Assembly: GCA_905235625.1 (NCBI GenBank)
Contig: CAJOLX010000009.1
Location: forward strand, 1-41,211
From: an uncultured Clostridia bacterium
GTDB taxonomy: Bacteria > Bacillota > Clostridia > Oscillospirales > Acutalibacteraceae
DNA length: 41,211 nt
Direction of reading: 5' to 3'
Made by a program: the position numbers and the translations under genes. The notes under the pieces are model-generated. The model did no database searches. It saw only the letters and a program-made list of their open reading frames with translations, and was not told the origin of the DNA. Below are positions 24,403 to 37,350 of this stretch, piece after piece (the first letter of the stretch is position 1; every line of letters begins with the position of its first letter).

Positions 24403-24438
24403 AAAGAAGGTTGGCAATTTAGTCAACCTTCTTTATTG
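24403..24438. terminator. Bidirectional terminator between the CDF and NERD genes
   Basis: AAAGAAGGTTG (24403-24413) pairs with CAACCTTCTTT (24424-24434), an 11-bp stem with TTTATTG on the plus side. The right arm overlaps the last codons and stop of the minus-strand gene. Confidence 0.75.
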
Positions 24439-25136
24439 TGTTTGTTTCTTATGTTTTGAATATGTTTTTGTTTAATCGAATCGCTTACTTGCGAATATGG
24501 ATATAACAATTCATATAACCGCATGATTTCTTCGTCTGGAACAGCGTCTTGCGGCATCATATGGATTGCTTCTGTCAAGGCAGAAACAATGTTGTTCCTT
24601 TTCACTACTTGGACATCCTTGCTGGAAACTGAAATCTTTTTCAAAGTACAACGTTCTGAAAAAACTATAATTGATTGTATTGCATAATTATCTCCGATGA
24701 CAGTTTTTAAATACTTAATATGCAAATTGTTTTGCATAATCGGATTGAAAAATTTTTCTTTATGTGCCGCTCTCCCTTTACCTTGAGGCAATGTTTGTGT
24801 CCATGTTTTGCTCTTCTCATCCCCAAAAATCCATCCGCTGTAGTTTTTACTCTCAAATACGATAAAGCCCTGCGGAAGTATCAGTATTACATCACATTCT
24901 GTTGTTTCACCGTTTTCTTTAGGAAGATACACGTTAAACAAAAACTTTGCCCCTTGCTTCTCAAGGTATTTCAGCTGCTTAAATATTCTGTATTCGCCGT
25001 ATTTGCCCGTATCGGCAATAGTTGCAAAATACGAATTGCCTGTTGCAGAATGATATGTTGTTTTATTAAAACTGAAAACTTGCAATATTACAATCAGCAG
25101 AACGACTATAAACGCAGGAATAATAACTGTTGTCAT
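24423..25136 (-). CDS. NERD-domain nuclease-related membrane protein
   Basis: 237 residues: an N-terminal membrane span (IIPAFIVVLLIVILQVFSF) and a NERD domain from about residue 45 (GKYGEYRIFKQLKYL, then TECDVILILPQGFIVFESKNYSGWIF), whose Asp and Glu-x-Lys fit a PD-(D/E)XK-like nuclease core. The family occurs in plasmid, defence and membrane contexts, with little biochemistry. An excellent AGGAGG sits before the ATG. The gene is 25 bp downstream of larE on the same strand, so it may ride on the lar transcript, yet it is clearly richer in A+T than its neighbours, suggesting recent acquisition. Confidence 0.75.
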   Translation of the reverse strand: MTTVIIPAFIVVLLIVILQVFSFNKTTYHSATGNSYFATIADTGKYGEYRIFKQLKYLEKQGAKFLFNVYLPKENGETTECDVILILPQGFIVFESKNYSGWIFGDEKSKTWTQTLPQGKGRAAHKEKFFNPIMQNNLHIKYLKTVIGDNYAIQSIIVFSERCTLKKISVSSKDVQVVKRNNIVSALTEAIHMMPQDAVPDEEIMRLYELLYPYSQVSDSIKQKHIQNIRNKHNKEG

Positions 25137-25161: not shown

Positions 25162-25995
25162 TTAGAAAACTGATTTCTCCGACTCTTTGAGGGCGGCGTT
25201 CATGCTGCCTACGGAATAGCCGGCGAGGTCGAGAGCGACGTGGAGAAAGCCGAGCTTTTTGAGCTCTTTATCGACCTGTTCCATAAGAGAGGCGTCAAAA
25301 AATTTGCCTATTTCGCTCTTGTCGACCTCTATTCTCGCCACCTTGCCGTGAGTGCGCACTCTCACCTTGACAAATCCGAGCGAGAGAAGGTACTGCTCCG
25401 CTTTGTCAATCCTTTCAAGACGTTCGGCGGTTATTTTTTCGCCGTATTCAATTCTCGAGGCAAGGCACGCCGACGAGGGCTTGTTCCAGGTGGGCAGGCC
25501 CGCGAGCCTTGAAAGCTCTCTTATATCGGCTTTGCCGAGCCCCGCTTCTCTGAGAGGGCTTTTTATGCCGAGCTCTTTAACCGCTCTGAGCCCCGGGCGG
25601 TAGTCGCCGAGGTCGTCAATATTGGAGCCCTCCGCAACGAACGGAAAACCTCTGCGCTCCGCTTCTTCGGAGAATTTCGTGAACATATCCCTCCTGCAAT
25701 AATAGCATCTGTCGGGCGGATTGCTCACGTATTGCGGCACGGACATTTCGTCGGTGTTCACCATTATCTGTTTGACTTCGAGCTTTGAGCAAAAATCGGA
25801 GGATTGACCGCGCTCCCTCTGCGGGAAGGACGGCGACACTCCGGTGAGCGCGATCACGTTTTTGCTGCCGAGCGCGTCGCTTGCGCAATAGAGCAAAAAC
25901 GCGGAGTCCGCGCCCGCCGAAAACGCAACGGCAACCTTGCCGAGCGATTTAAGATAAGCGTAAAGAGCTTCTTTTTTCTTTTGAAGGTCATCCAT
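25162..25995 (-). CDS. larE: LarE, sulfur transferase for nickel-pincer nucleotide synthesis
   Basis: 277 residues from ATG 25995, behind GGCGGAG and four bases after the larC stop. The PP-loop reads FSAGADS (26-31; Ala for the usual Gly), which binds ATP to adenylylate the pyridinium carboxylate. Cys177 in SSACLASR matches the sacrificial Cys176 of Lactiplantibacillus LarE. Cys97 and Cys100 (RCYYCRRDMF) are additional, as in the Fe-S-type LarE reported from Thermotoga, so this copy may hold a 4Fe-4S cluster and transfer sulfide catalytically rather than sacrifice its own Cys (inference). It is the third gene of larB-larC-larE. Confidence 0.9.
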   Translation of the reverse strand: MDDLQKKKEALYAYLKSLGKVAVAFSAGADSAFLLYCASDALGSKNVIALTGVSPSFPQRERGQSSDFCSKLEVKQIMVNTDEMSVPQYVSNPPDRCYYCRRDMFTKFSEEAERRGFPFVAEGSNIDDLGDYRPGLRAVKELGIKSPLREAGLGKADIRELSRLAGLPTWNKPSSACLASRIEYGEKITAERLERIDKAEQYLLSLGFVKVRVRTHGKVARIEVDKSEIGKFFDASLMEQVDKELKKLGFLHVALDLAGYSVGSMNAALKESEKSVF

Positions 25996-25999
25996 CTTT

Positions 26000-27229
26000 T
26001 TATTCTCCGCCGTCAACGAGATTTTTTGCCTCTCTGAGGCTTATGCCTCTTTCGCGGGCTATATTCGCGAGGTCGTCAAATTCATATTTTTCTTTTTGAA
26101 ATCCGCCGCCGCTCGACTTTTTAATTCTCACTGAGCCGTATTCGGTGTCGGCGATTACCGTTTCTCTTTTGAGTATTTTTCTTTCTTTTTCGCATTCTCT
26201 GATGCCTATGGTCGAGGTGTGCTTAAAAATGAGCGCCTCGATTTTTTCTTTGTTTTGCGGCTCGCACAAAACGGTGAACAGCGTGCCGGGCCTGTTTTTC
26301 TTCATGCCGGCGGGGGTCGTGAACGCCTCAAGAGCGCCGCCCTCGAGCATCATTTCGAGCGCGAAGCCTATTTCCTCGGCGGTCATGTCGTCTATGTTGC
26401 ATGAGAGCTCAATAACTCTGTCGCCCGCTTCCTTTTCTTCGCCCGAAATCGCTCTTACGCAGTTTGCGTATTTAAAATCCTTTTTGCCCATGCCGTAGCC
26501 GATTTTTTCAACAGTCATAACCGGCATATCGCCGAATTCCTGAACGAAATTTTTTAAAAGCGCCGCTCCGGTGGGAGTGCAAAGCTCGCCGTCGATTTCT
26601 CCGCCGTAAATCGGAATTCCGCTCAGAATATAAGCCGTGGCGGGAGCGGGCACGGGCAGAATGCCGTGGGCGCATTTCACTCTGCCGCTGCCCACGTGAA
26701 CGGGCGAAGCGACAACTCTGTCGGGCGAAAGCTTTCTCATGATGAGGCAGACGGCAGCGATATCCGCAACGGCGTCCATCGCTCCGACCTCGCTGAAATG
26801 AACGTTTTGCACGCTTTCGCCGTGCACGAGGCTTTCGGCGCCGGCGATTATGCCGTAAACGGAGAGAATATCCTCTTTAACTTCTTCGGGGGCGTTCATG
26901 TGGCCGTTTACAATATGCTCAATTTCGCTCATTCCGCCGCCGTGAGAATGGGAGTGACCGTGTTCGTGTTCGTGCTCGTGAGTGTGCTCGTGGTGATGCT
27001 CGTGCTCATGGATTATTTCGTCTTCGCGAACGCCGTTAACGAAAACCTCCATTTGAGAGCCGGTAACGCCGCATTTTTCGGCCTTTTTGAGCCTGTATTC
27101 AACGCCCGGTATGCCGAGGGAATTGAGCTCGTCGAGCATCTTTTCGGGCTCGGGCAGCAGATTTATGAGAGCGGCGGAAAGCATATCTCCGGCGGCTCCC
27201 ATGCCGCAGTCAAGATAAAGAGTTTTCAT
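26000..27229 (-). CDS. larC: LarC, nickel insertion into the pincer cofactor
   Basis: 409 residues in one uninterrupted frame. The N-terminal part (LYLDCGMGAAGDMLSAAL) and the C-terminal CTP-dependent half (CNIDDMTAEEIGFALE, MKKNRPGTLFTVL) are both complete. The first gene of this type to be characterised was split by a programmed frameshift; this one is not. A His-rich insert near residues 73-97 contains about 13 His alternating with Glu and ends GHSHSHGGG; it is suited to hold Ni2+. LarC builds the Ni-pincer from LarB and LarE products. The ATG overlaps the larB stop (ATGA), so translation is coupled. Confidence 0.92.
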   Translation of the reverse strand: MKTLYLDCGMGAAGDMLSAALINLLPEPEKMLDELNSLGIPGVEYRLKKAEKCGVTGSQMEVFVNGVREDEIIHEHEHHHEHTHEHEHEHGHSHSHGGGMSEIEHIVNGHMNAPEEVKEDILSVYGIIAGAESLVHGESVQNVHFSEVGAMDAVADIAAVCLIMRKLSPDRVVASPVHVGSGRVKCAHGILPVPAPATAYILSGIPIYGGEIDGELCTPTGAALLKNFVQEFGDMPVMTVEKIGYGMGKKDFKYANCVRAISGEEKEAGDRVIELSCNIDDMTAEEIGFALEMMLEGGALEAFTTPAGMKKNRPGTLFTVLCEPQNKEKIEALIFKHTSTIGIRECEKERKILKRETVIADTEYGSVRIKKSSGGGFQKEKYEFDDLANIARERGISLREAKNLVDGGE

Positions 27230-27981
27230 TTCTTTGCCTCCATGTGGTTTATCATACCGGCAAGATAGCCTGCGCCGAAGCCGTTGTCAATATTGACCAC
27301 CGACACGCCGCCCGCGCAGGAATTGAGCATCGAGAGCAGGGCGGAGAGCCCGCCGAAGCTCGCGCCGTAGCCAACGCTCGTGGGCACGGCGATAACGGGG
27401 CAGTCCGCAAGGCCGCCTATTACGCTTGCGAGAGCGCCCTCCATGCCCGCGACCGCCACGATAACGCTCGCGTTCATTATTTCTTCTTTGTGCGAGAGAA
27501 GCCTGTGAAGCCCGGAAACGCCCACGTCATAGAGGCGGGTGACTTCGTTGCCGAAAACCTCCGCCGTTACAGCCGCTTCCTCAGCGACGGGGATGTCGCT
27601 CGTGCCGCCCGTCGCAACCACTATTTTGCCTATGCCGTCGGGCTCGGGCTTGCTGCCGATTACGGCAGTGCGCGAGAGCGGGCAGTAATCGAGCTCAAAG
27701 CTTTGCTTTAAAATTTCGCATTGCTCGCCGTCAAGCCTCGTTATAAGTATTCTTTCGCATCCGCTTTTGAGCATTTCGGACACTATTGAGCGCATCTGGC
27801 CGGCGGTTTTGCCTGCGCCGTAAATCACCTCGGGGTAGCCCTGCACGGTTTCTCTGTGCAAATCCACCTTGGCAAAGCCGAGGTCTTTATAAGGCTCGCT
27901 CTTTAGCTTCGTGAGCGCTTCGTCAACCGAAAGCTCGCCGGAGCTCACCTTTTCGAGAATCGTTTTAACTTCCGTTTTCAT
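27226..27981 (-). CDS. larB: LarB, carboxylase of nickel-pincer nucleotide synthesis
   Basis: 251 residues from ATG 27981, with GGTGAT upstream; a GTG four codons earlier is also in frame. The N-terminal segment (ILEKVSSGELSVDEALTKL) and PurE-like core (GKIVVATGGTSDIPVAEEAA, then VGVSGLHRLLSH and MEGALASVIGGLADCPVIAV) match LarB, which carboxylates nicotinic acid adenine dinucleotide at the start of the pathway. The product serves lactate racemase or other LarA-type enzymes. No larA lies in this window. It is the first gene of the operon, and a hairpin separates it from the small membrane protein gene upstream. Confidence 0.92.
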   Translation of the reverse strand: MKTEVKTILEKVSSGELSVDEALTKLKSEPYKDLGFAKVDLHRETVQGYPEVIYGAGKTAGQMRSIVSEMLKSGCERILITRLDGEQCEILKQSFELDYCPLSRTAVIGSKPEPDGIGKIVVATGGTSDIPVAEEAAVTAEVFGNEVTRLYDVGVSGLHRLLSHKEEIMNASVIVAVAGMEGALASVIGGLADCPVIAVPTSVGYGASFGGLSALLSMLNSCAGGVSVVNIDNGFGAGYLAGMINHMEAKK

Positions 27982-28010
27982 TTTTATCACCACGCGTTTT
28001 ACGCCTGTTT

Positions 28011-29760: not shown

Positions 29761-29789
29761 TTGATTTTTTATTGTCGAATTGATATAAT
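29761..29789 (+). promoter_or_regulatory. Extended -10 promoter upstream of the 172-aa protein and the RNA-RT unit
   Basis: TTGATT (29761-29766), 17 bp, TGA-TATAAT (-10 at 29784-29789). It is the only clear promoter before the structured RNA and the reverse transcriptase, so all three may share it. Confidence 0.65.
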
Positions 29790-29895: not shown

Positions 29896-30414
29896 ATGGG
29901 CTTGTTTTCAAAAATACTCGGCGAAAACAGCGACGCTGAAAAAGTCGCGAAAGATTTAATCGGCGGAATTATCAAAACCGCTCAGCAGCAGGCGTCTTCA
30001 GCCGGCTCGGGCAAAGCCGAAAGCGGCGCTTCTTACGGCGCGCCTGCCGCGGCAAAGCCTTCTCCCTCAGGATTTTCATGGGGAGAGGAAATGCCGAATG
30101 AAGAAAATCAGTTTAACTTTAACGGCACCTACACGCAGTATTTCGAGAGCATTTTCCGCGCGGAATTTTCAAATTACCGCATAGAAAAAACTGCGCCGGG
30201 CGGCTCGAACAGAACCGTTTACACCTTCTATTCGGGCGACCGCAAGGCTCTCGTTACCGAGATCATGTCGCAAAACTGCTCGGCAAAAAAACTGCGCAGA
30301 GACTGCGAGGCGGCGGGAATACCCTATCTGCGCTATTACTATGACCACCACGGCTGGTGGAACACCCGCAACTATGTCGTAACACGCACCCGCGCCGCTC
30401 TCGGCGAAAACTAA
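29896..30414 (+). CDS. Unrecognised 172-residue protein upstream of the RNA-RT unit
   Basis: The start is ATG 29896 (AAAGGACGAAATACA upstream), not the longer open frame. Residues 1-35 are a helical head (MGLFSKILGENSDAEKVAKD), 36-72 a flexible Gly/Ser/Ala/Pro linker, and 75-172 a compact domain (TYTQYFESIFRAEFSNYRIE, VYTFYSGDRKALVTEI, then AAGIPYLRYYYDH and NYVVTRTRAAL). The C-terminal domain has the rhythm of small Clostridial proteins that resemble restriction-endonuclease folds, but I see no clear D/ExK pair, so no nuclease claim is made. It ends eight bases before the structured RNA. Confidence 0.6.
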   Translation: MGLFSKILGENSDAEKVAKDLIGGIIKTAQQQASSAGSGKAESGASYGAPAAAKPSPSGFSWGEEMPNEENQFNFNGTYTQYFESIFRAEFSNYRIEKTAPGGSNRTVYTFYSGDRKALVTEIMSQNCSAKKLRRDCEAAGIPYLRYYYDHHGWWNTRNYVVTRTRAALGEN

Positions 30415-30422
30415 AATCAGCT

Positions 30423-30564
30423 AAAAAGGCAGAAAGAGAACGCTTTTGCGCCTGCGGCAGACCCGGCGCCGGCATTTTTAAGGCTTCGCAGGCAGCCGCC
30501 GAACGTACGGTCCCGTACATCCCAGAATTATCTGGGATTTAACGATTTCTCTTTCTGCTTTTTT
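30423..30564 (+). ncRNA. Compact multi-hairpin RNA directly upstream of a reverse transcriptase
   Basis: The outer stem P1 is GCAGAAAGAGAA (30429-30440) with TTCTCTTTCTGC (30547-30558), 12 perfect pairs, extended by A-U pairs to 30423 and 30563. Inside lie P2 GCCTGCG/CGCAGGC (30450-30456, 30487-30493) enclosing the palindrome CCGGCGCCGG (30463-30472), P3 GTACG/CGTAC (30505-30509, 30514-30518), and P4 ATCCCAGA-ATTA-TCTGGGAT (30519-30538). The 3' arm of P1 leads straight into TTTTTT, so the RNA should terminate there. The RT start lies 31 bases further on. Alternatives are a decorated terminator of the upstream gene, or a MITE-like element with terminal inverted repeats. Confidence 0.6.
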
Positions 30565-30594
30565 ATATTATTGCTTAAAATCAGAGGGAACGGT

Positions 30595-31806
30595 ATGTCT
30601 TTACTCGATGCTCTCGGAAGCGAAAATGCGTGGGAAACGTTTTATGAATACAAGCTCGGGCTCGCCTGTCAAAAAAACTTCACCGCCGAGCTCAGAGAAT
30701 TCATTGACGAAAAGCGCTATTTGCCCGTTTATGAAAAAATAAGCGGCGGCGAAGAAGCATTTCCGCTGCCGAAAAAAACAGTAATCAGCAAGATGGGCAG
30801 CGATAAAAAGCGGGTGGTTTACACTTATCCCGACGATGAAAACACCGCGCTCAAGCTGCTCACTTATCTTATGCTGCGAAAATACGACAAAATCTTCGCC
30901 GGCAATCTGTATTCTTTTCGCCCCGGCAGAACGGCAAAGGACGCCGTGCGCCGCCTCACGAGGACTAAGGGCATTTCGCAAACGTATTCTTACAAGGTTG
31001 ACGTGAGCGATTATTTTAACTCCGTGCCTGTCGATTTGCTTTTGCCGCCTCTGAAAAGCGCGCTTGCGGATGACGAAAAGCTTTATGACTTTCTCTCGTC
31101 GCTTTTGCTTGAAACAGACGTTATTGAAAACGGTCGGATTCACCCGGAGCGCAAGGGCATTATGGCGGGCACTCCCGTTTCGTCGTTTTTCGCAAATCTT
31201 TTTTTGACCGACCTTGACCGTTATTTTGAAGAAAACGGCTTTCTTTACGCAAGATATTCCGACGATATAATTCTCTTTGCCGACACCCGCGGGGAATGCG
31301 AACGAAGGGCTGAAATCGCGCTTTCTTTTCTTCATTCTCACGGTCTTTCGGTCAATCCCAAAAAGGAATGCTTCTCTTCTCCCGAAGAGGGCTTCACCTT
31401 CCTCGGCTTTTACGTTTGCGGCAAAACGGTCGACATCGCTCCCGTTACCGTGCAAAAGCTAAAGGGCAAAATGCGCCGCAAGCGAGACGCTCTCACGCGG
31501 TGGAAAAAGAGAAACGACGTTGACGGCGAAAAAGCGGCGAAGGCTTTTATCAGAGTGTTTAACCGCAAGCTGTTTGAAAATTCGGGCGACAACGAGCTAA
31601 CGTGGAGCAAGTGGTTTTTCCCGTGCCTTACCCGCGCCGACAGCCTTAAAGAAATTGACCTTTACGCGCAGGACTGCATAAGATATCTCATAAGCGGCAA
31701 GCACACCAAAGCCCGCTTTAACGCGCGCTATGAATACATCAAAAAGCTCGGCTACAAAAGCCTCGTTCACGAATATTACAGCTTCAAAAGCGAAAATGAA
31801 CGGTAA
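30595..31806 (+). CDS. Stand-alone reverse transcriptase of uncertain class
   Basis: 403 residues from ATG 30595 (AGAGGG upstream). RT blocks in order: SFRPGRTAKDAVRRL, catalytic Asp136 in YKVDVSDYFNSV, KGIMAGTPVSSFFANLFL, the YSDD box 221-224 in ARYSDDIILFAD, GLSVNPKKECF, and FTFLGFYV. A helical thumb follows (LKGKMRRKRDALTRW) and a C-terminal domain with SKWFFPCL and CIRYLISGKHTKARFNARYEYI. No En/HNH nuclease or X-domain maturase fold is present, so it is not an intact group II intron. The motif before YxDD is TPVSS rather than the SQ of diversity-generating RTs, and no retron NAxxH/VTG is seen. The class is therefore unknown; a structured RNA precedes it. Confidence 0.85.
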   Translation: MSLLDALGSENAWETFYEYKLGLACQKNFTAELREFIDEKRYLPVYEKISGGEEAFPLPKKTVISKMGSDKKRVVYTYPDDENTALKLLTYLMLRKYDKIFAGNLYSFRPGRTAKDAVRRLTRTKGISQTYSYKVDVSDYFNSVPVDLLLPPLKSALADDEKLYDFLSSLLLETDVIENGRIHPERKGIMAGTPVSSFFANLFLTDLDRYFEENGFLYARYSDDIILFADTRGECERRAEIALSFLHSHGLSVNPKKECFSSPEEGFTFLGFYVCGKTVDIAPVTVQKLKGKMRRKRDALTRWKKRNDVDGEKAAKAFIRVFNRKLFENSGDNELTWSKWFFPCLTRADSLKEIDLYAQDCIRYLISGKHTKARFNARYEYIKKLGYKSLVHEYYSFKSENER

Positions 31807-32319: not shown

Positions 32320-35300
32320 ATGACGAATGAGGAAAAACTTTGGTTTCAAAAGCTGACTGAGGACAGAGAAGACAGCGCAAGGACTCTTGAAAAGCGCTCA
32401 ATGAAGGGTGTTAGAACAAGCGTTGTTGATAAATATACCGACCAGGCGCACTTTATTTATGAGCTTTTACAGAATGCCGATGATGCTAATGCAACATCGG
32501 TAAGATTTGCGCTTTGTAATAAAGGTCTGGTGTTCGCTCATAACGGAACCAGGAGATTCACCGTTACCGACCCTGACAATGAAGATGAAGATTCAATAAA
32601 CGGAACCCTTGGAGATATCAACTCGATTACATCAATAGCCAACTCAAATAAAAATGATGATAAAAACAAAATAGGAAAATTCGGCGTTGGTTTTAAAGCG
32701 GTTTTTCAGTATACGGAAACTCCTAAAATCTATGACCCTGAAATTGCCTTCAGAATTGAAAGGTTCATAGTTCCAAAGCTGATTAAAGAGGACTGTGAAG
32801 CAAGAAAAAGCGATGAAACTTTGTTCCTTTTTCCGTTTAATCATCATGAGAAAACAGCAGAGGAAGCTTATGAGGATATTGCATCAAAGCTGAAGTCACT
32901 CGTGTTTCCGATACTCTTCCTCCCCAAACTTCAAAAGATTCGCTTTGATATTGACGGATTTAAAGGAACTTACAGCAAGGATATCAAAGAAACCCGTTAT
33001 TTCAAAGACATAACTGCCGAGAGAATTCACCTTATCCAAAATAGTGGCGAAGAAAAAACAGTTGAGGAGTTGTGGCTCTTTAGCCGCAAGGAAGACGGCA
33101 ATGTCTATTCTGTAGGTTTTGCCCTGGATAAAAACGGGAAGCTGAAACCGATTGACAAACCCGCATTTTGCTTTTTCCCAACAAAGGAAGACACCAAGCT
33201 GCACTTCATAGTTCATGCTCCGTTTTTGCTTAATGACAGCCGTGAAGGTATTCTCGCCGGTGAAGAGCACAATAAAAAGATGATTAATCTGCTGGCAAGG
33301 CTTGCCGGCGATGCCCTTGTGTGCCTCAAAGAGATTGCCGTTGAAACAAAAACCATGATTATAAATGATGATATTCTTGATATTGTGCCTTATGATGATG
33401 AGATATTCACCGAAATCGGCAACAGGGACAGGATATCTTTCAAACCATTTTATGATGAAATAAAGGAGAGATTTGAAAGCGAAGATATTATCCCGTCCGC
33501 CGATGGATATGTTTACGGGAAAGATGCATACTGGCCTTATTTCACCGTTATTTCAGAAATATTTTCTGACGAACAGTTATCCGAATTAACATTCAATCCC
33601 GATGCAAGATGGGTTTTCTCTTCCCTTCCCCGTCAAAGCCTGCATAGTGTCAGAGACACAAAAAGTGATTATATCGACGATATTGTAAATGCTTGTATTT
33701 ACGATGATGATTTGCTGGATGGCAATTATGCTGCCGGCACCAAAAGAATCAATCCTGAGTTTATTGAAAGCCAAAGTATTGAATGGCTCCATAAGTTTTA
33801 TTCGTGGCTCAACAAAGCAACAGAAAGGTCAGAAAAATCGAAAATATTGCCCGTGTTCCTCAACTCGGACAGTAAAGCAGTTGAGGCATTTGATTCAAAC
33901 AATATGCCTAAAATATTCATTTCCGCCGAAGCAAGCGATAACTTTTCAACAATTCATCCGGACTTGCTGAAGAATGAGGAAACGGTTGCATTTTTCAAAA
34001 AAATCGGTATTAAAGAGCCGTCTCTTAAAGATGAAATATATAACCACATTCTTCCTAAATATGAATATGATTATGATATTGATGAAGACAACGATTTCAT
34101 CAAAATGTTTACATACTATAAGCAGTGTCCCAAAGAGGAACTAAAGAGCTACATTAATCTTGTGAAAGATTGTGAGATAATATATTTCAAATGTGCCAAC
34201 GATGATGAAATCTATCGAGGAATAGCGGAAACTATTTACTTCCCCGAAGAGAACCTATTGAAGTATTTTGAGCCGCAGGAAGAAGCAAGATTCTTAGATT
34301 ATGATGCTTATAAAGATGTCATAGATGAAAAAGACTGGGATTTGTTCATTGAGTTTTTAGAAGAACTGGGTGTATCAAGAACGGTCAGAATAATTGATGT
34401 TGAATACAGCCACACTCAGGCAACAGTTTTGGGCTTGCCAAATGATTATTTCACAGGCGATAAAAAATGGATTGAAAAACAGATTGACGGCTGCGAAGAA
34501 ATACTTGAAGCTATTGTTAAAGAACAGAGTCTTGAATACTCAATCGCATTATGGAATCAATTGCTTTTTGTGATTGATACTGATACATTACATGTATCAT
34601 ATTCATTCAACACTGCTCTTGACAGAATTCTCAAGGGCAATTACTACAGAAATGATAAAACAAAATCATTCATTGAAATAAAGCATTTGAAATCATTCAA
34701 ATGGCTTATGGGCAAAGACGGTGAATTTCATTCCGGCGATGAAATGTCAACCGATGAACTAGCGTCTGAATATGAAATCAACTCTGACAACGCTAAAGAA
34801 CTCATTCGCTTTCTCGGAATACATGAATCGCATGATGATGCCGATATAGAAAGAATCAAAAGAATTTCAGAGTTGACCGATGAAGAAAAGAAGGCGCTGT
34901 TTTTTGCAAAGAAACTAAAAGCTCTCGGCTTTGAAAATGAAGAGGATGCTCAGCGCGCTGCTCAGCTGCTTCGGGCAGAAAAGCAAAAGAAAGAAGAAAA
35001 GCGCCTTGAAGAAGAAGCTGAAAAAGGTAATAAGCAGCTCGAAAGAATAAACCGGATAACCACCGATGTGTCTAAAAGAGCAAATGAATTTGTCGAGAAA
35101 GGTGAAAACGTCGCTCAGAGCGGAAACGAAACCAAAGAAACGGTTAAGAAACCCTTAATAAATACTGATTTTGACGACGAAGCAGATGAGGACGATTACA
35201 CTCCCAAGATAGAAAAGTTTGAAAAGCGCAAGGAAAAAGCAGAAGAAAAAGCAGCGGCAGAAGTAGGAAAAATAGCTTATGAGGAAGACCTGGAAACAAG

Positions 35301-37350
35301 AATTTCCGGGGCGGAAAAATATTCTTATGAATGGTTTACTTCTTTGCTGGAACTTGAAGCAATAAGAAGCGGCGAAAATAATATGAACAGCCGTGAGGTT
35401 TCCATAAGCTTTGCAAAAGTTGAAAGAGAAGCAGGGACTCAGCGCACTCTTATTTTGAAACACCCCAGCAGACATATTCCGCAGTTTATGGAAGAACTTG
35501 CCGATATTCCTCTTGTGCTTCAAACTGAAAATGAAAAGAAAACCGTTGCTATTGAAGTTATCAATATCAAATCTTATACCTTGAGAGTAAAGCTCAAAGC
35601 AAACGCCGAACTGGATAATTTTGATCTTTCCGCAGTTAGGGAAGCTACTATCAACGCTCAGAATCCTGCGTTTTTGCTTGAAGCATTGAGAAAAGAATTC
35701 AATGCGCTTGATTTTGAGCCGGACTATAATATGAGGGATAACTTGCCTGAAAACATTGAATTTGTTTTCGGGCCTCCGGGGACAGGCAAGACAACTCATT
35801 TAGCTAAGAATGTTATCCTTCCGCTTATGAACGGAAAGGAAAAGCCGCGTATTCTTGTGCTTACTCCCACAAATAAAGCATCCGATATTCTGGCTTCAAG
35901 AATCATGGAAGTGTCTGAGGACAGTTCATACGAAGAATGGCTCACAAGATTTGGCGGCACCGGTGATGAAGCAATAGAGCAAAGCCCGATATTCAGAGAT
36001 AAGACTTTTGATATTCAAAGCCTTGAAAAATCCTGCGTCATTACTACAATAGCAAGATTTCCTTACGATTCCTTTATGCCCTTTGGTAAATGGCTTTTTA
36101 TCAAAGATTTAAAATGGGACTACATCATTATTGATGAAGCCTCAATGGTTCCCATTGCAAATATTGTTTATCCGCTTTACAAAAAAACTCCTAAGAAATT
36201 TATTATTGCAGGAGATCCTTTCCAAATCGAACCGATTGTTGCTGTTGATACATGGAAAGATGAAAGCATTTATACTCTCGTTAAACTTAATTCTTTTGTA
36301 AACCCAACAACCGTTCCCCACGATTATAAAGTTGAGCTTCTCACAACTCAGTACAGAAGCATACCTGCTGTCGGCACTGTTTTCAGTCAGTTTACTTATG
36401 GCGGAATTCTTAAGCACTTCAGAGACGAAGATTCTCAAAGACCGCTTAATATTGACGCGGGATTTGACATTAATACTCTTAACATTATTAAGTTTCCCGT
36501 CAGTAAATATGAGAGCATTTATCGCCCGAAGAGATTGCAGGGCAAAACACCGTATCATATTTATTCGGCGTTATTCTCTTGTGAGTTTGCCAACTATCTT
36601 GCAAATTTAATAAGCAAATCAAATCCGGAAGAGATTTTCAGAATCGGTATTATTTCAACCTACAGAGCGCAGGCCGACTTGATTGACAAGCTGCTTGCCT
36701 CAATGAAATTACCGGAAAAAGTTGATATTCAGGTTGGAACAATTCACGGTTTTCAAGGCGATGAATGCGATATGATTATAGCAGTATTCAATCCTCCGCC
36801 GAAGATCGGCGATTCATCTCAAACGTTCCTTAACAAGACAAACATTATCAATGTTTCCATCAGCCGGGCAAAAGACTATATGTTCATCATTATGCCCGAT
36901 GATGATACTGAAAATATCAATAATCTCCGACTGGTTAAGAGAGTTGAAAAGCTTTTTAAAAACAGCGGCGTTTGTTGTGAAATAGAATCTCACGAGGTTG
37001 AAGAGATAATGTTTGGCGATGAAAACTATCTGGAAAACAACTCGTTCTCAACAAGTCATCAGGCAGTTAATGTCTACAGTCTTCCCGAAAAGTATTATGA
37101 AATCAGAAGTGAAGATACAGCGGTTGATGTTCAGATACATAAAAGCAATAAGCCGGGCAGCGGCGAAGCAACAGTTGCTCCGGCAAAGAAATATATTTAC
37201 AGCAGAACTTATGGCAAGGGCGAGGTTGTAATGCGCAGACGGGATGCCGTCGGGCGGGCGCTTGATATTAAGTTTGATTCACTCGATGCCGTAAAAACAT
37301 TCTATGGGGAAAAGGCATTTTTAAGCGGTGAATTGAGCTGGATTGAATAA
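32320..37350 (+). CDS. Giant sacsin/Hsp90-like ATPase fused to an SF1 (Upf1-like) helicase
   Basis: 1676 residues from ATG 32320 (AAAGGAT upstream). The N-terminal GHKL domain shows the N-box ELLQNADDANATS (48-60) and the lid/G motifs IGKFGVGFKAVF (about 116-127), as in sacsin and plant NOV proteins. A long middle region follows, then a charged coiled coil (about 865-990). The helicase has Walker A GPPGTGKTT (about 1150), IIIDEAS (about 1271), GDPFQIEP, TTQYRSIP, and the end motifs TIHGFQGDE and NVSISRAKD. The C terminus resembles a small SH3/Tudor-like domain (YGKGEVVMRRRDAVGRA). No nuclease domain is visible. Composition is much more AT-rich than its neighbours, which points to transfer. 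Such fusions are common in antiphage islands. Confidence 0.85.
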   Translation: MTNEEKLWFQKLTEDREDSARTLEKRSMKGVRTSVVDKYTDQAHFIYELLQNADDANATSVRFALCNKGLVFAHNGTRRFTVTDPDNEDEDSINGTLGDINSITSIANSNKNDDKNKIGKFGVGFKAVFQYTETPKIYDPEIAFRIERFIVPKLIKEDCEARKSDETLFLFPFNHHEKTAEEAYEDIASKLKSLVFPILFLPKLQKIRFDIDGFKGTYSKDIKETRYFKDITAERIHLIQNSGEEKTVEELWLFSRKEDGNVYSVGFALDKNGKLKPIDKPAFCFFPTKEDTKLHFIVHAPFLLNDSREGILAGEEHNKKMINLLARLAGDALVCLKEIAVETKTMIINDDILDIVPYDDEIFTEIGNRDRISFKPFYDEIKERFESEDIIPSADGYVYGKDAYWPYFTVISEIFSDEQLSELTFNPDARWVFSSLPRQSLHSVRDTKSDYIDDIVNACIYDDDLLDGNYAAGTKRINPEFIESQSIEWLHKFYSWLNKATERSEKSKILPVFLNSDSKAVEAFDSNNMPKIFISAEASDNFSTIHPDLLKNEETVAFFKKIGIKEPSLKDEIYNHILPKYEYDYDIDEDNDFIKMFTYYKQCPKEELKSYINLVKDCEIIYFKCANDDEIYRGIAETIYFPEENLLKYFEPQEEARFLDYDAYKDVIDEKDWDLFIEFLEELGVSRTVRIIDVEYSHTQATVLGLPNDYFTGDKKWIEKQIDGCEEILEAIVKEQSLEYSIALWNQLLFVIDTDTLHVSYSFNTALDRILKGNYYRNDKTKSFIEIKHLKSFKWLMGKDGEFHSGDEMSTDELASEYEINSDNAKELIRFLGIHESHDDADIERIKRISELTDEEKKALFFAKKLKALGFENEEDAQRAAQLLRAEKQKKEEKRLEEEAEKGNKQLERINRITTDVSKRANEFVEKGENVAQSGNETKETVKKPLINTDFDDEADEDDYTPKIEKFEKRKEKAEEKAAAEVGKIAYEEDLETRISGAEKYSYEWFTSLLELEAIRSGENNMNSREVSISFAKVEREAGTQRTLILKHPSRHIPQFMEELADIPLVLQTENEKKTVAIEVINIKSYTLRVKLKANAELDNFDLSAVREATINAQNPAFLLEALRKEFNALDFEPDYNMRDNLPENIEFVFGPPGTGKTTHLAKNVILPLMNGKEKPRILVLTPTNKASDILASRIMEVSEDSSYEEWLTRFGGTGDEAIEQSPIFRDKTFDIQSLEKSCVITTIARFPYDSFMPFGKWLFIKDLKWDYIIIDEASMVPIANIVYPLYKKTPKKFIIAGDPFQIEPIVAVDTWKDESIYTLVKLNSFVNPTTVPHDYKVELLTTQYRSIPAVGTVFSQFTYGGILKHFRDEDSQRPLNIDAGFDINTLNIIKFPVSKYESIYRPKRLQGKTPYHIYSALFSCEFANYLANLISKSNPEEIFRIGIISTYRAQADLIDKLLASMKLPEKVDIQVGTIHGFQGDECDMIIAVFNPPPKIGDSSQTFLNKTNIINVSISRAKDYMFIIMPDDDTENINNLRLVKRVEKLFKNSGVCCEIESHEVEEIMFGDENYLENNSFSTSHQAVNVYSLPEKYYEIRSEDTAVDVQIHKSNKPGSGEATVAPAKKYIYSRTYGKGEVVMRRRDAVGRALDIKFDSLDAVKTFYGEKAFLSGELSWIE

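What the first reader, a model, noticed from the sequence alone, without database searches (positions are those of the whole stretch)
30423..31806. Structured RNA with closing 12-bp stem directly upstream of an unclassified reverse transcriptase
Seen: a 142-base element with a perfect 12-bp outer stem, at least three inner hairpins and an immediate U-run, 31 bases before an RT start. Known: retrons (a1/a2-closed msr-msd) and some DRT antiphage systems place their template RNA just upstream of the RT. Inference: this is the template/primer RNA of the RT. The RT itself shows YSDD, TPVSS before it and no retron NAxxH/VTG, so it may belong to an undescribed class.
Basis: partly seen in the sequence, partly recalled or inferred. 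Interest (0 to 1): 0.8.

Follow-up and report, generated by a model that had tools for sequence, protein, structure and literature searches.

The report
Reverse transcriptase with partner RNA
A bacterium carries a reverse transcriptase and a small folded RNA that are kept together across many related species; the RNA bears marks of a short template that could be copied over and over, much as telomerase copies its own RNA, though no product has been seen yet.

Summary
The folded RNA is real, but not new as an object. It is Rfam RT-5 (80.5 bits, threshold 45.7), and the enzyme is a catalogued, uncharacterised class, PADLOC RT_UG26 (E 5e-175). So "undescribed class" is wrong; "template RNA of the RT" is strengthened.

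In 76 aligned homologous elements the fold, outer stem and a pseudoknot included, pairs in 93.3% of cells, and 34 of 44 pairs show changes on both sides. In one bacterial family 74 of 79 genomes with the RT carry the RNA, against 1 of 36 without. In 24 of the 74 it lies 1.2-9.5 kb from the RT, which speaks for action in trans and against a leader or attenuator.

Just 3' of the last hairpin lies a short loop flanked by a direct repeat (window: GAUUU-AAC-GAUUU). The copies match better within an RNA than between RNAs, though not among the most divergent. That is the A-B-A' signature published for the telomerase-like DRT10 system. I predict tandem-repeat cDNA, (GTTAAATC)n.

In one genus 23 of 23 genomes have the RT, at one conserved chromosomal place in the 16 examined, under purifying selection: odd for phage defence. 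Product and function are untested.

The parts
29761..29789 (+). Candidate promoter of the operon (TTGATT-17-TATAAT, TG before the second hexamer)
   Evidence: Consensus match only, 10 of 12; 7 such sites in the region against 3.1 +/- 1.9 in shuffles
29896..30414 (+). Accessory gene, 172 aa, RT-associated (PADLOC RTasCOG2852)
   Evidence: E 4.3e-66; relatives directly upstream in 118 of 189 collected loci, some with little upstream DNA held; no Pfam family for the window member; model with alpha-beta-beta-beta-alpha-beta-alpha core, pLDDT 81, no PDB fold match at E <= 0.001
30423..30564 (+). Structured ncRNA, Rfam RT-5 (RF03026) plus its closing stem
   Evidence: the Rfam match covers 30446-30550
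30429..30440 (+). Closing stem, 5' strand (pairs with 30547-30558)
   Evidence: 11 of 12 pairs with changes on both sides, 93.8% of cells paired
30441..30450 (+). Small hairpin, CGC/GCG
   Evidence: 98.2% of cells paired, 1 of 3 pairs with changes on both sides
30451..30456 (+). Pseudoknot, 5' strand (pairs with 30487-30492)
   Evidence: 99.8% of cells paired, 3 of 6 pairs with changes on both sides
30458..30514 (+). Two-part stem (30458-30463 with 30509-30514, 30466-30473 with 30499-30506) and inner hairpin, crossed by the pseudoknot
   Evidence: 14 pairs, 11 with changes on both sides, 91.7% of cells paired; inner hairpin 3 of 3, 89.0%. The window itself breaks 6 of the 14 pairs as written
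30520..30537 (+). Last hairpin, proposed 5' boundary of the template
   Evidence: 5 of 6 pairs with changes on both sides, 88.8% of cells paired
30536..30548 (+). Proposed template: A = 30536-30540 GAUUU, B = 30541-30543 AAC, A' = 30544-30548 GAUUU; the single-stranded loop is 30538-30546
   Evidence: Direct repeat in the sequence; match between A and A' exceeds permuted pairs
30547..30558 (+). Closing stem, 3' strand, followed by the U-run
30595..31806 (+). Reverse transcriptase, 403 aa, class UG26
   Evidence: PADLOC RT_UG26 E 5.3e-175; Pfam RVT_1 E 7.5e-25; YSDD at residues 221-224

Best explanation
The window holds a UG26 reverse transcriptase system: accessory gene, RT-5 ncRNA, RT. The ncRNA folds into a pseudoknotted core closed by a long stem and partners the RT in trans (fold, partnership and separable placement shown by comparison; binding inferred). 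The RT copies the short loop just 3' of the last hairpin, stops at that hairpin, slips back, and re-anneals the end of the new DNA to the second copy of a short direct repeat (A-B-A'). The result is single-stranded tandem-repeat DNA, here (GTTAAATC)n if A = GAUUU, or (ATCGTTAAA)n if only the UU at the start of the loop is used (inferred). Priming is probably by a conserved tyrosine near the RT's C-terminus (inferred). The accessory protein probably reads or acts on the product (inferred, no direct evidence).
For: Partnership: RNA in 74 of 79 RT-bearing genomes of one family and in 1 of 36 without; beside the RT in 85 of 89 loci; over the Rfam threshold in 8 of 8 first relatives. Trans: of the 74, 45 have the RNA within 1 kb, 24 have it 1.2-9.5 kb upstream on the same contig and strand, 5 on another contig; opposite-strand genes lie between in L094 and L190. 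Own promoter: exact TATAAT at the 5' edge in 17 of 27 distinct elements without a detected accessory gene (18 of 28 rows; L094 and L204 are one element) against 2% of background windows. Fold. Template: the loop lies 3' of the last hairpin inside the closing stem, the place reported for DRT10 (PMC12632851) and in an analogous loop for DRT3 and DRT9 (PMC13174585). A/A' match: mean 3.35 nt in 88 unique pairs against 3.18 permuted (26 of 2000 reach it) and 2.88 letter-shuffled; within the UUUAA clade (58 pairs) 6 of 2000. One element per RT cluster at 75% identity: z 3.7, n 102; control region z -1.7. The base before the loop co-varies with A': C with C in 15 of 17 against 29 of 65 (p 0.002), A with A in 29 of 63 against 1 of 19 (p 0.0009), n = 82. 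The next UG classes by score are UG27, UG4, UG17 (= DRT10) and DRT9.
Against: No cDNA, RNA or binding data exist. The A/A' signal vanishes where RTs are most divergent (clusters at 65%: z 0.95, n 64), and the two smaller loop groups show no excess (862 and 560 of 2000). 20 of 88 pairs share only 2 nt. The windows and the base classes were chosen after I had looked at loops, so the probabilities are descriptive, and related sequences are not independent. The UU of A' also pairs with a conserved AA of the closing stem, so its conservation has a second cause. By sequence and by fold the RT is closer to a group II intron RT than to DRT9. In loci with an accessory gene the promoter signal is weak (3 of 55 exact, 14 of 55 with 5 of 6; background 1.3% and 10%), so there the RNA may come from the operon transcript. 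Tyrosine priming was not measured on the model.
Confidence: 0.6

Rival explanations
1. The RNA is an essential partner and template, but the product is not made by repeat realignment: a single short cDNA, or a concatemer as in DRT2.
For: Partnership and fold evidence does not depend on repeats; the conserved UUUAA of the main clade could be a fixed start or recognition site; no A/A' excess in the smaller loop groups.
Against: The A/A' match exceeds permuted pairs, and a control region does not; the variable part of the loop is flanked by the repeat, as in DRT10.
Confidence: 0.25
2. The RNA is a structural cofactor or guide with no template role.
For: Most invariant letters lie in the pseudoknotted core.
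Against: The loop is unpaired, of nearly fixed length and placed where related RTs have their templates (PMC12632851, PMC12483538, PMC13174585).
Confidence: 0.1
3. The RNA is a cis-acting leader, attenuator or terminator of the RT gene.
For: It ends in a U-run shortly before the RT start in the window, and 45 of 74 genomes have it within 1 kb.
Against: In 24 of 74 genomes it lies 1.2-9.5 kb away and in 5 on another contig, with opposite-strand genes between in L094 and L190; also on another contig in the genomes of L067 and L079; own promoter signal.
Confidence: 0.03
4. The RNA is the msr-msd of a retron.
For: A closing stem upstream of an RT.
Confidence: 0.02

Closest known systems
Rfam RT-5 RNA (RF03026)
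   Same: The same RNA family: 80.5 bits, full model length.
   Different: The Rfam match covers 30446-30550 without the closing stem. The structure line printed by cmscan shows no pseudoknot; such models cannot hold one, so I cannot say whether Rfam's own annotation has it.
PADLOC RT_UG26 with RTasCOG2852
   Same: Best and near-full-length matches of the RT and of the accessory protein.
   Different: The models name proteins only. I found no paper on the activity of UG26 or on RT-5 in the library searched.
DRT10 (UG17 RT, SLATT protein, ncRNA; PMC12632851)
   Same: Template loop just 3' of the last hairpin inside a closing stem; A-B-A' pattern; UG17 is among the next-best RT profiles.
   Different: Different RT class (UG26 580 bits against UG17 92); the ncRNA matches RT-5 (its relation to the DRT10 RNA was not tested); no SLATT family in the three neighbours tested; a different accessory protein.
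DRT9 (UG28, poly-U template; PMC12483538)
   Same: Position of the template in the ncRNA as described in the papers; conserved tyrosines near the RT C-terminus.
   Different: DRT9's template is a uniform U run; here the loop is mixed. RT scores 580 bits to UG26 and 85 to Drt9.

Membership tests
Rfam RT-5 RNA | Score over the curated threshold | tested here: met
   80.5 against 45.7 bits
UG26 reverse transcriptase | Best profile match is RT_UG26, full length, with intact YxDD | tested here: met
   579.9 bits, residues 1-399; next UG class 108.7 bits; YSDD at 221
Class 2 UG RT with template ncRNA | Conserved ncRNA linked to the RT | tested here: met
Class 2 UG RT with template ncRNA | Place in the class 2 clade of a UG tree | not tested
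   No tree was built; only profile scores
Class 2 UG RT with template ncRNA | RNA-templated cDNA is made | not testable with these tools
   Needs cDNA sequencing
DRT (phage defence) | Protects against phage in an RT-dependent way | not testable with these tools
   Only context: a candidate defence gene next door in the window; in one genus 23 of 23 genomes have it and 16 of 16 examined share its place, which is unusual for defence
DRT10 | UG17 RT | tested here: not met
   UG26 580 bits against UG17 92 bits
DRT10 | Adjacent SLATT protein | tested here: not met
   No SLATT family at E <= 0.001 in three neighbouring proteins
DRT10 | A-B-A' template pattern 3' of a stable hairpin | tested here: met
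   GAUUU-AAC-GAUUU at 30536-30548, A reaching two bases into the hairpin; population test, not significant at deep divergence
   Absent from the RT
Retron | msr-msd RNA with branched 2'-5' msDNA | not testable with these tools
   Needs biochemistry

The most novel reading that the evidence does not exclude
UG26 with RT-5 is a telomerase-like ribonucleoprotein that writes short tandem-repeat DNA, and in one bacterial genus it has become a fixed, vertically inherited part of the cell rather than a mobile defence gene.
Probability: 0.25. Interest if true: 0.87.

Novelty: new variant of a known kind. Interest (0 to 1): 0.6.

Why it matters
For Rfam RT-5 and for the RT class UG26 I found no described function in the library searched. 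This work ties them into one unit, gives a covariation-backed pseudoknotted fold, shows that RNA and RT can lie apart, and names the bases likely to be copied together with the predicted product. If right, telomerase-like repeat addition is wider among bacterial RTs than the systems already published, which bears on where telomerase came from, and a genus in which the RT is a core gene offers a natural test of what such DNA does.

Tried and rejected
Mobile carrier: viral contigs gave no relative with the window protein and one 27% match with A1. Plasmids (the 5000 best records kept) and phages (44 records) gave only matches under 60% identity; the rows listed are at most 28%. Accessory protein: no Pfam family for the window member, only weak single-member matches among the 44 (best E 0.0061), no PDB sequence match at E <= 1, no PDB fold match at E <= 0.001 (best E 0.029, a restriction endonuclease at rank 2 with E 0.036). 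Left as 'nuclease-like core by topology, unproven'. A 4-bp GUAC hairpin (window 30505-30518) was considered and dropped: nearly invariant, and broken in some elements by eye. Weinberg 2017 and the UG/Abi paper of 2022 are recalled only; they are not held.

Rows dropped: one search skipped six repeats or odd elements and left out L063 and L066, giving 77 references; L090 was then left out, so A2 has 76. In one search, 16 of 189 RTs were dropped (under 370 aa, X or identical). In one search, L010 had no parsed loop, and L105 and L185 are absent because model R1 missed them. In one search only the 127 elements with an RT in hand were used. In one search, R1 matched 58 of 75 sources at E <= 0.001. 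Of the 17 misses, nine are loci with no RNA in the stretch held (L067, L079, L096, L174, L175, L177, L189, L191, L192), one is a contig edge (L136) and seven are very divergent (L105, L153-L157, L185). Rfam RT-5 passed its threshold in 13 of 20 divergent loci; it missed L105, L107, L153-L156 and L185, but found L157. Several loci are the same place reached twice (such as L003 and L017, L005 and L015, L094 and L204, L107 and L185), which inflates raw counts slightly; searches use unique pairs or clusters.

Full report
WHAT IS THERE. The stretch 30423-30564 folds far better than shuffles (z -5.5) and gives the only RNA-family match over threshold in the window: Rfam RT-5, 30446-30550, 80.5 bits (alignment). 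The gene after it (ATG 30595 to 31806, 403 aa) matches PADLOC RT_UG26 over its full length with 579.9 bits; the next UG classes are UG27 (109), UG4 (97), UG17 (92) and Drt9 (85). The gene before it (29896-30414) matches PADLOC RTasCOG2852. A promoter-like site stands before that gene (29761-29789). So the window holds an accessory-RNA-RT operon of a catalogued but uncharacterised class. The genome has one RT-5 match and one UG26 match.

HOMOLOGUES. Eight of 197 genomes sampled from the order have UG26 at E <= 1e-60, the window's own among them, in nine places; the eight relatives' loci all carry RT-5 upstream. With an nhmmer profile, 85 of 89 loci (these 80, the eight relatives and the window; a few are the same place reached twice) have the element upstream of the RT, 5 to 578 bases away. 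Two misses are contig edges (L026, L064). The other two (L067, L079) have 4 kb upstream without it, but their genomes hold one RNA each on another contig, next to an ORF that reads like the accessory protein, and one RT; binning errors in such assemblies are possible. The genome of L026 showed no RNA.

FOLD. On 76 aligned elements I wrote down 44 pairs, taken from reading these same sequences and the Rfam structure, and then counted: closing stem, small hairpin, two-part stem, inner hairpin, last hairpin, and a pseudoknot joining 30451-30456 to 30487-30492. 93.3% of cells pair; 34 of 44 pairs have changes on both sides; covariation score 0.395 against 0.192 shuffled (0 of 500 reach it) and at most 0.132 for slid partners. 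The closing stem, which the Rfam match leaves out, has 11 of 12 pairs with changes on both sides. The pseudoknot is 99.8% paired with 3 of 6. The window itself breaks six of the 14 pairs of the two-part stem as written. A similar layout, closing stem, last hairpin and loop, is predicted for the most divergent UG26 found (L185; z -4.1; 285 bits to the UG26 profile), which R1 and Rfam miss.

PARTNERSHIP AND TRANS PLACEMENT. In the family of G830, 79 of 115 genomes have UG26 at E <= 1e-50 and 75 have the RNA (model R1, strict filters); 74 have both. The five RT genomes without an R1 match (G953, G954, G957-G959) have divergent RTs and an element visible by eye, which Rfam accepts in G959 (L157, 46.9 bits). 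One genome has RNA without RT (G975, checked; 93% complete). Of the 74, 45 have the RNA within 1 kb of the RT, 24 have it 1,207 to 9,469 bases upstream on the same strand, and five on another contig; among the 69 on one contig no case is on the opposite strand or downstream. In L094 and L190 opposite-strand genes lie between. Of 83 rows in A3, 28 lack a detected accessory gene; 18 of these (17 of 27 distinct elements) have an exact TATAAT at the element's 5' edge against 2% of background windows; with an accessory gene it is 3 of 55 against 1.3% (for RNA-only loci the accessory search was not run, so 'lacking' is nominal). A leader or attenuator does not explain this; a separate RNA gene working in trans does.

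TEMPLATE. Between the last hairpin and the closing stem lies a short loop, in the main clade UUUAA-N4 followed by UU. In DRT10 the template sits just there and has the form A-B-A', where A' lets the new DNA end re-anneal for another round (PMC12632851: abstract, results and discussion read; its authors suggest that this may hold for all or part of the UG family). DRT3 has its template in an analogous loop (PMC13174585, passages). The window reads GAUUU-AAC-GAUUU. Over 88 unique pairs the longest shared word between the hairpin side and the stem side averages 3.35 nt, against 3.18 when partners are permuted (26 of 2000) and 2.88 when letters are shuffled; within the UUUAA clade 3.26 against 3.01 (6 of 2000); in the two smaller groups there is no excess (862 and 560 of 2000). 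Taking one element per RT cluster, z is 5.3, 5.0, 3.7 and 0.95 at 95, 85, 75 and 65% identity; a control piece of the stem gives z from -2.3 to -0.2. The base before the loop co-varies with A' (p 0.002 and 0.0009, n = 82). I set the windows and base classes after seeing loops, and related sequences are not independent, so this is support, not proof. Repeats with other letters, such as CUGUU-AAAUU-CUGUU (L106) and UUCUUUC-AAAG-UUCUUUC (L148), can be read; L143 and L144 share only 2 nt.

ENZYME. Among 173 RTs, Y379 is invariant, and Y394 and Y395 are tyrosine in 153 and 159. DRT9 is primed by tyrosines of its C-terminal tail (PMC12483538, passages) and DRT10 by a C-terminal serine or tyrosine. 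An AlphaFold model (pLDDT 90) matches group II intron RTs best, then G2L4, DRT9 and DRT2; by sequence too a group II intron RT comes first (E 5e-30; a DRT9 chain 2.5e-19). Priming by these residues is inference.

CORE GENE. In genus g576 23 of 23 genomes have the RT (in G1043 only a fragment at a contig end) and the same 23 have the RNA. Of these, 16 loci were compared: the same gene lies downstream in 16, an AcpS-like gene and a DnaC-like ATPase in 15 each, TrkA- and TrkH-like genes upstream in 13 each (names by my reading of the translations). RT identity between species (median 70%) lies within the range of the neighbours' medians (56-83%); rank correlation with the downstream genes is 0.51-0.58, with TrkA 0.29 and TrkH 0.21 (p 0.06). 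Median dN/dS is 0.11 over the 13 of 120 pairs with dS under 1.5. In wider samples UG26 is patchy: 8 of 197, 16 of 391, 17 of 150 and 3 of 13 genomes. So it looks like an accessory gene in most lineages sampled and a core gene in one.

WHAT IS SHOWN AND WHAT IS NOT. Shown by computation: family membership, fold, partnership, separable placement, promoter signal, conserved locus in one genus. Inferred: RNA binding, template use, repeat product, priming, the accessory's role, defence. I found no paper describing UG26 or RT-5 function in the library; PMC10504277 lists UG26 RTs in cold-seep viruses (passages), and PMC8934634 does not name UG26 in its main text (passages).

Noticed in passing
window 32320-37350 (+): 1676-aa protein with a Sacsin-like N-terminal part and a C-terminal AAA_11/AAA_12 helicase; best PADLOC matches are TmtA and MkoA models, so a candidate defence gene beside the RT operon.
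   Followed up: partly
window 25162-27993 (-): Three genes that look like larE, larC and larB (nickel insertion protein E 1.4e-133, AIR carboxylase E 2e-16; larE by reading only), the nickel-pincer cofactor pathway (recalled).
   Followed up: partly
window 24423-25136 (-): NERD nuclease-related protein (E 3.6e-28).
   Followed up: no
G076 contig C10, L005 and L010: One genome carries two UG26 systems about 55 kb apart with different template loops; L009 is a close relative of L010 in a second genome of the same genus.
   Followed up: no
L070, between the RNA and the RT: Two copies of a short GCGCCTGATTAAGGCGCAGGCAGCA unit that resembles the pseudoknot strands of the RNA itself.
   Followed up: no
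genus g420 loci, for example L094, L096, L174, L175, L177, L189-L192: Many RTs here lack an adjacent accessory gene, and other genes lie between RNA and RT; whether the accessory lies elsewhere in these genomes was not searched.
   Followed up: partly
L090:3800-3990, L016 and L066: RNAs with large inserts: a long extra arm at the last hairpin in L090, insertions in the core in L016 and L066.
   Followed up: no
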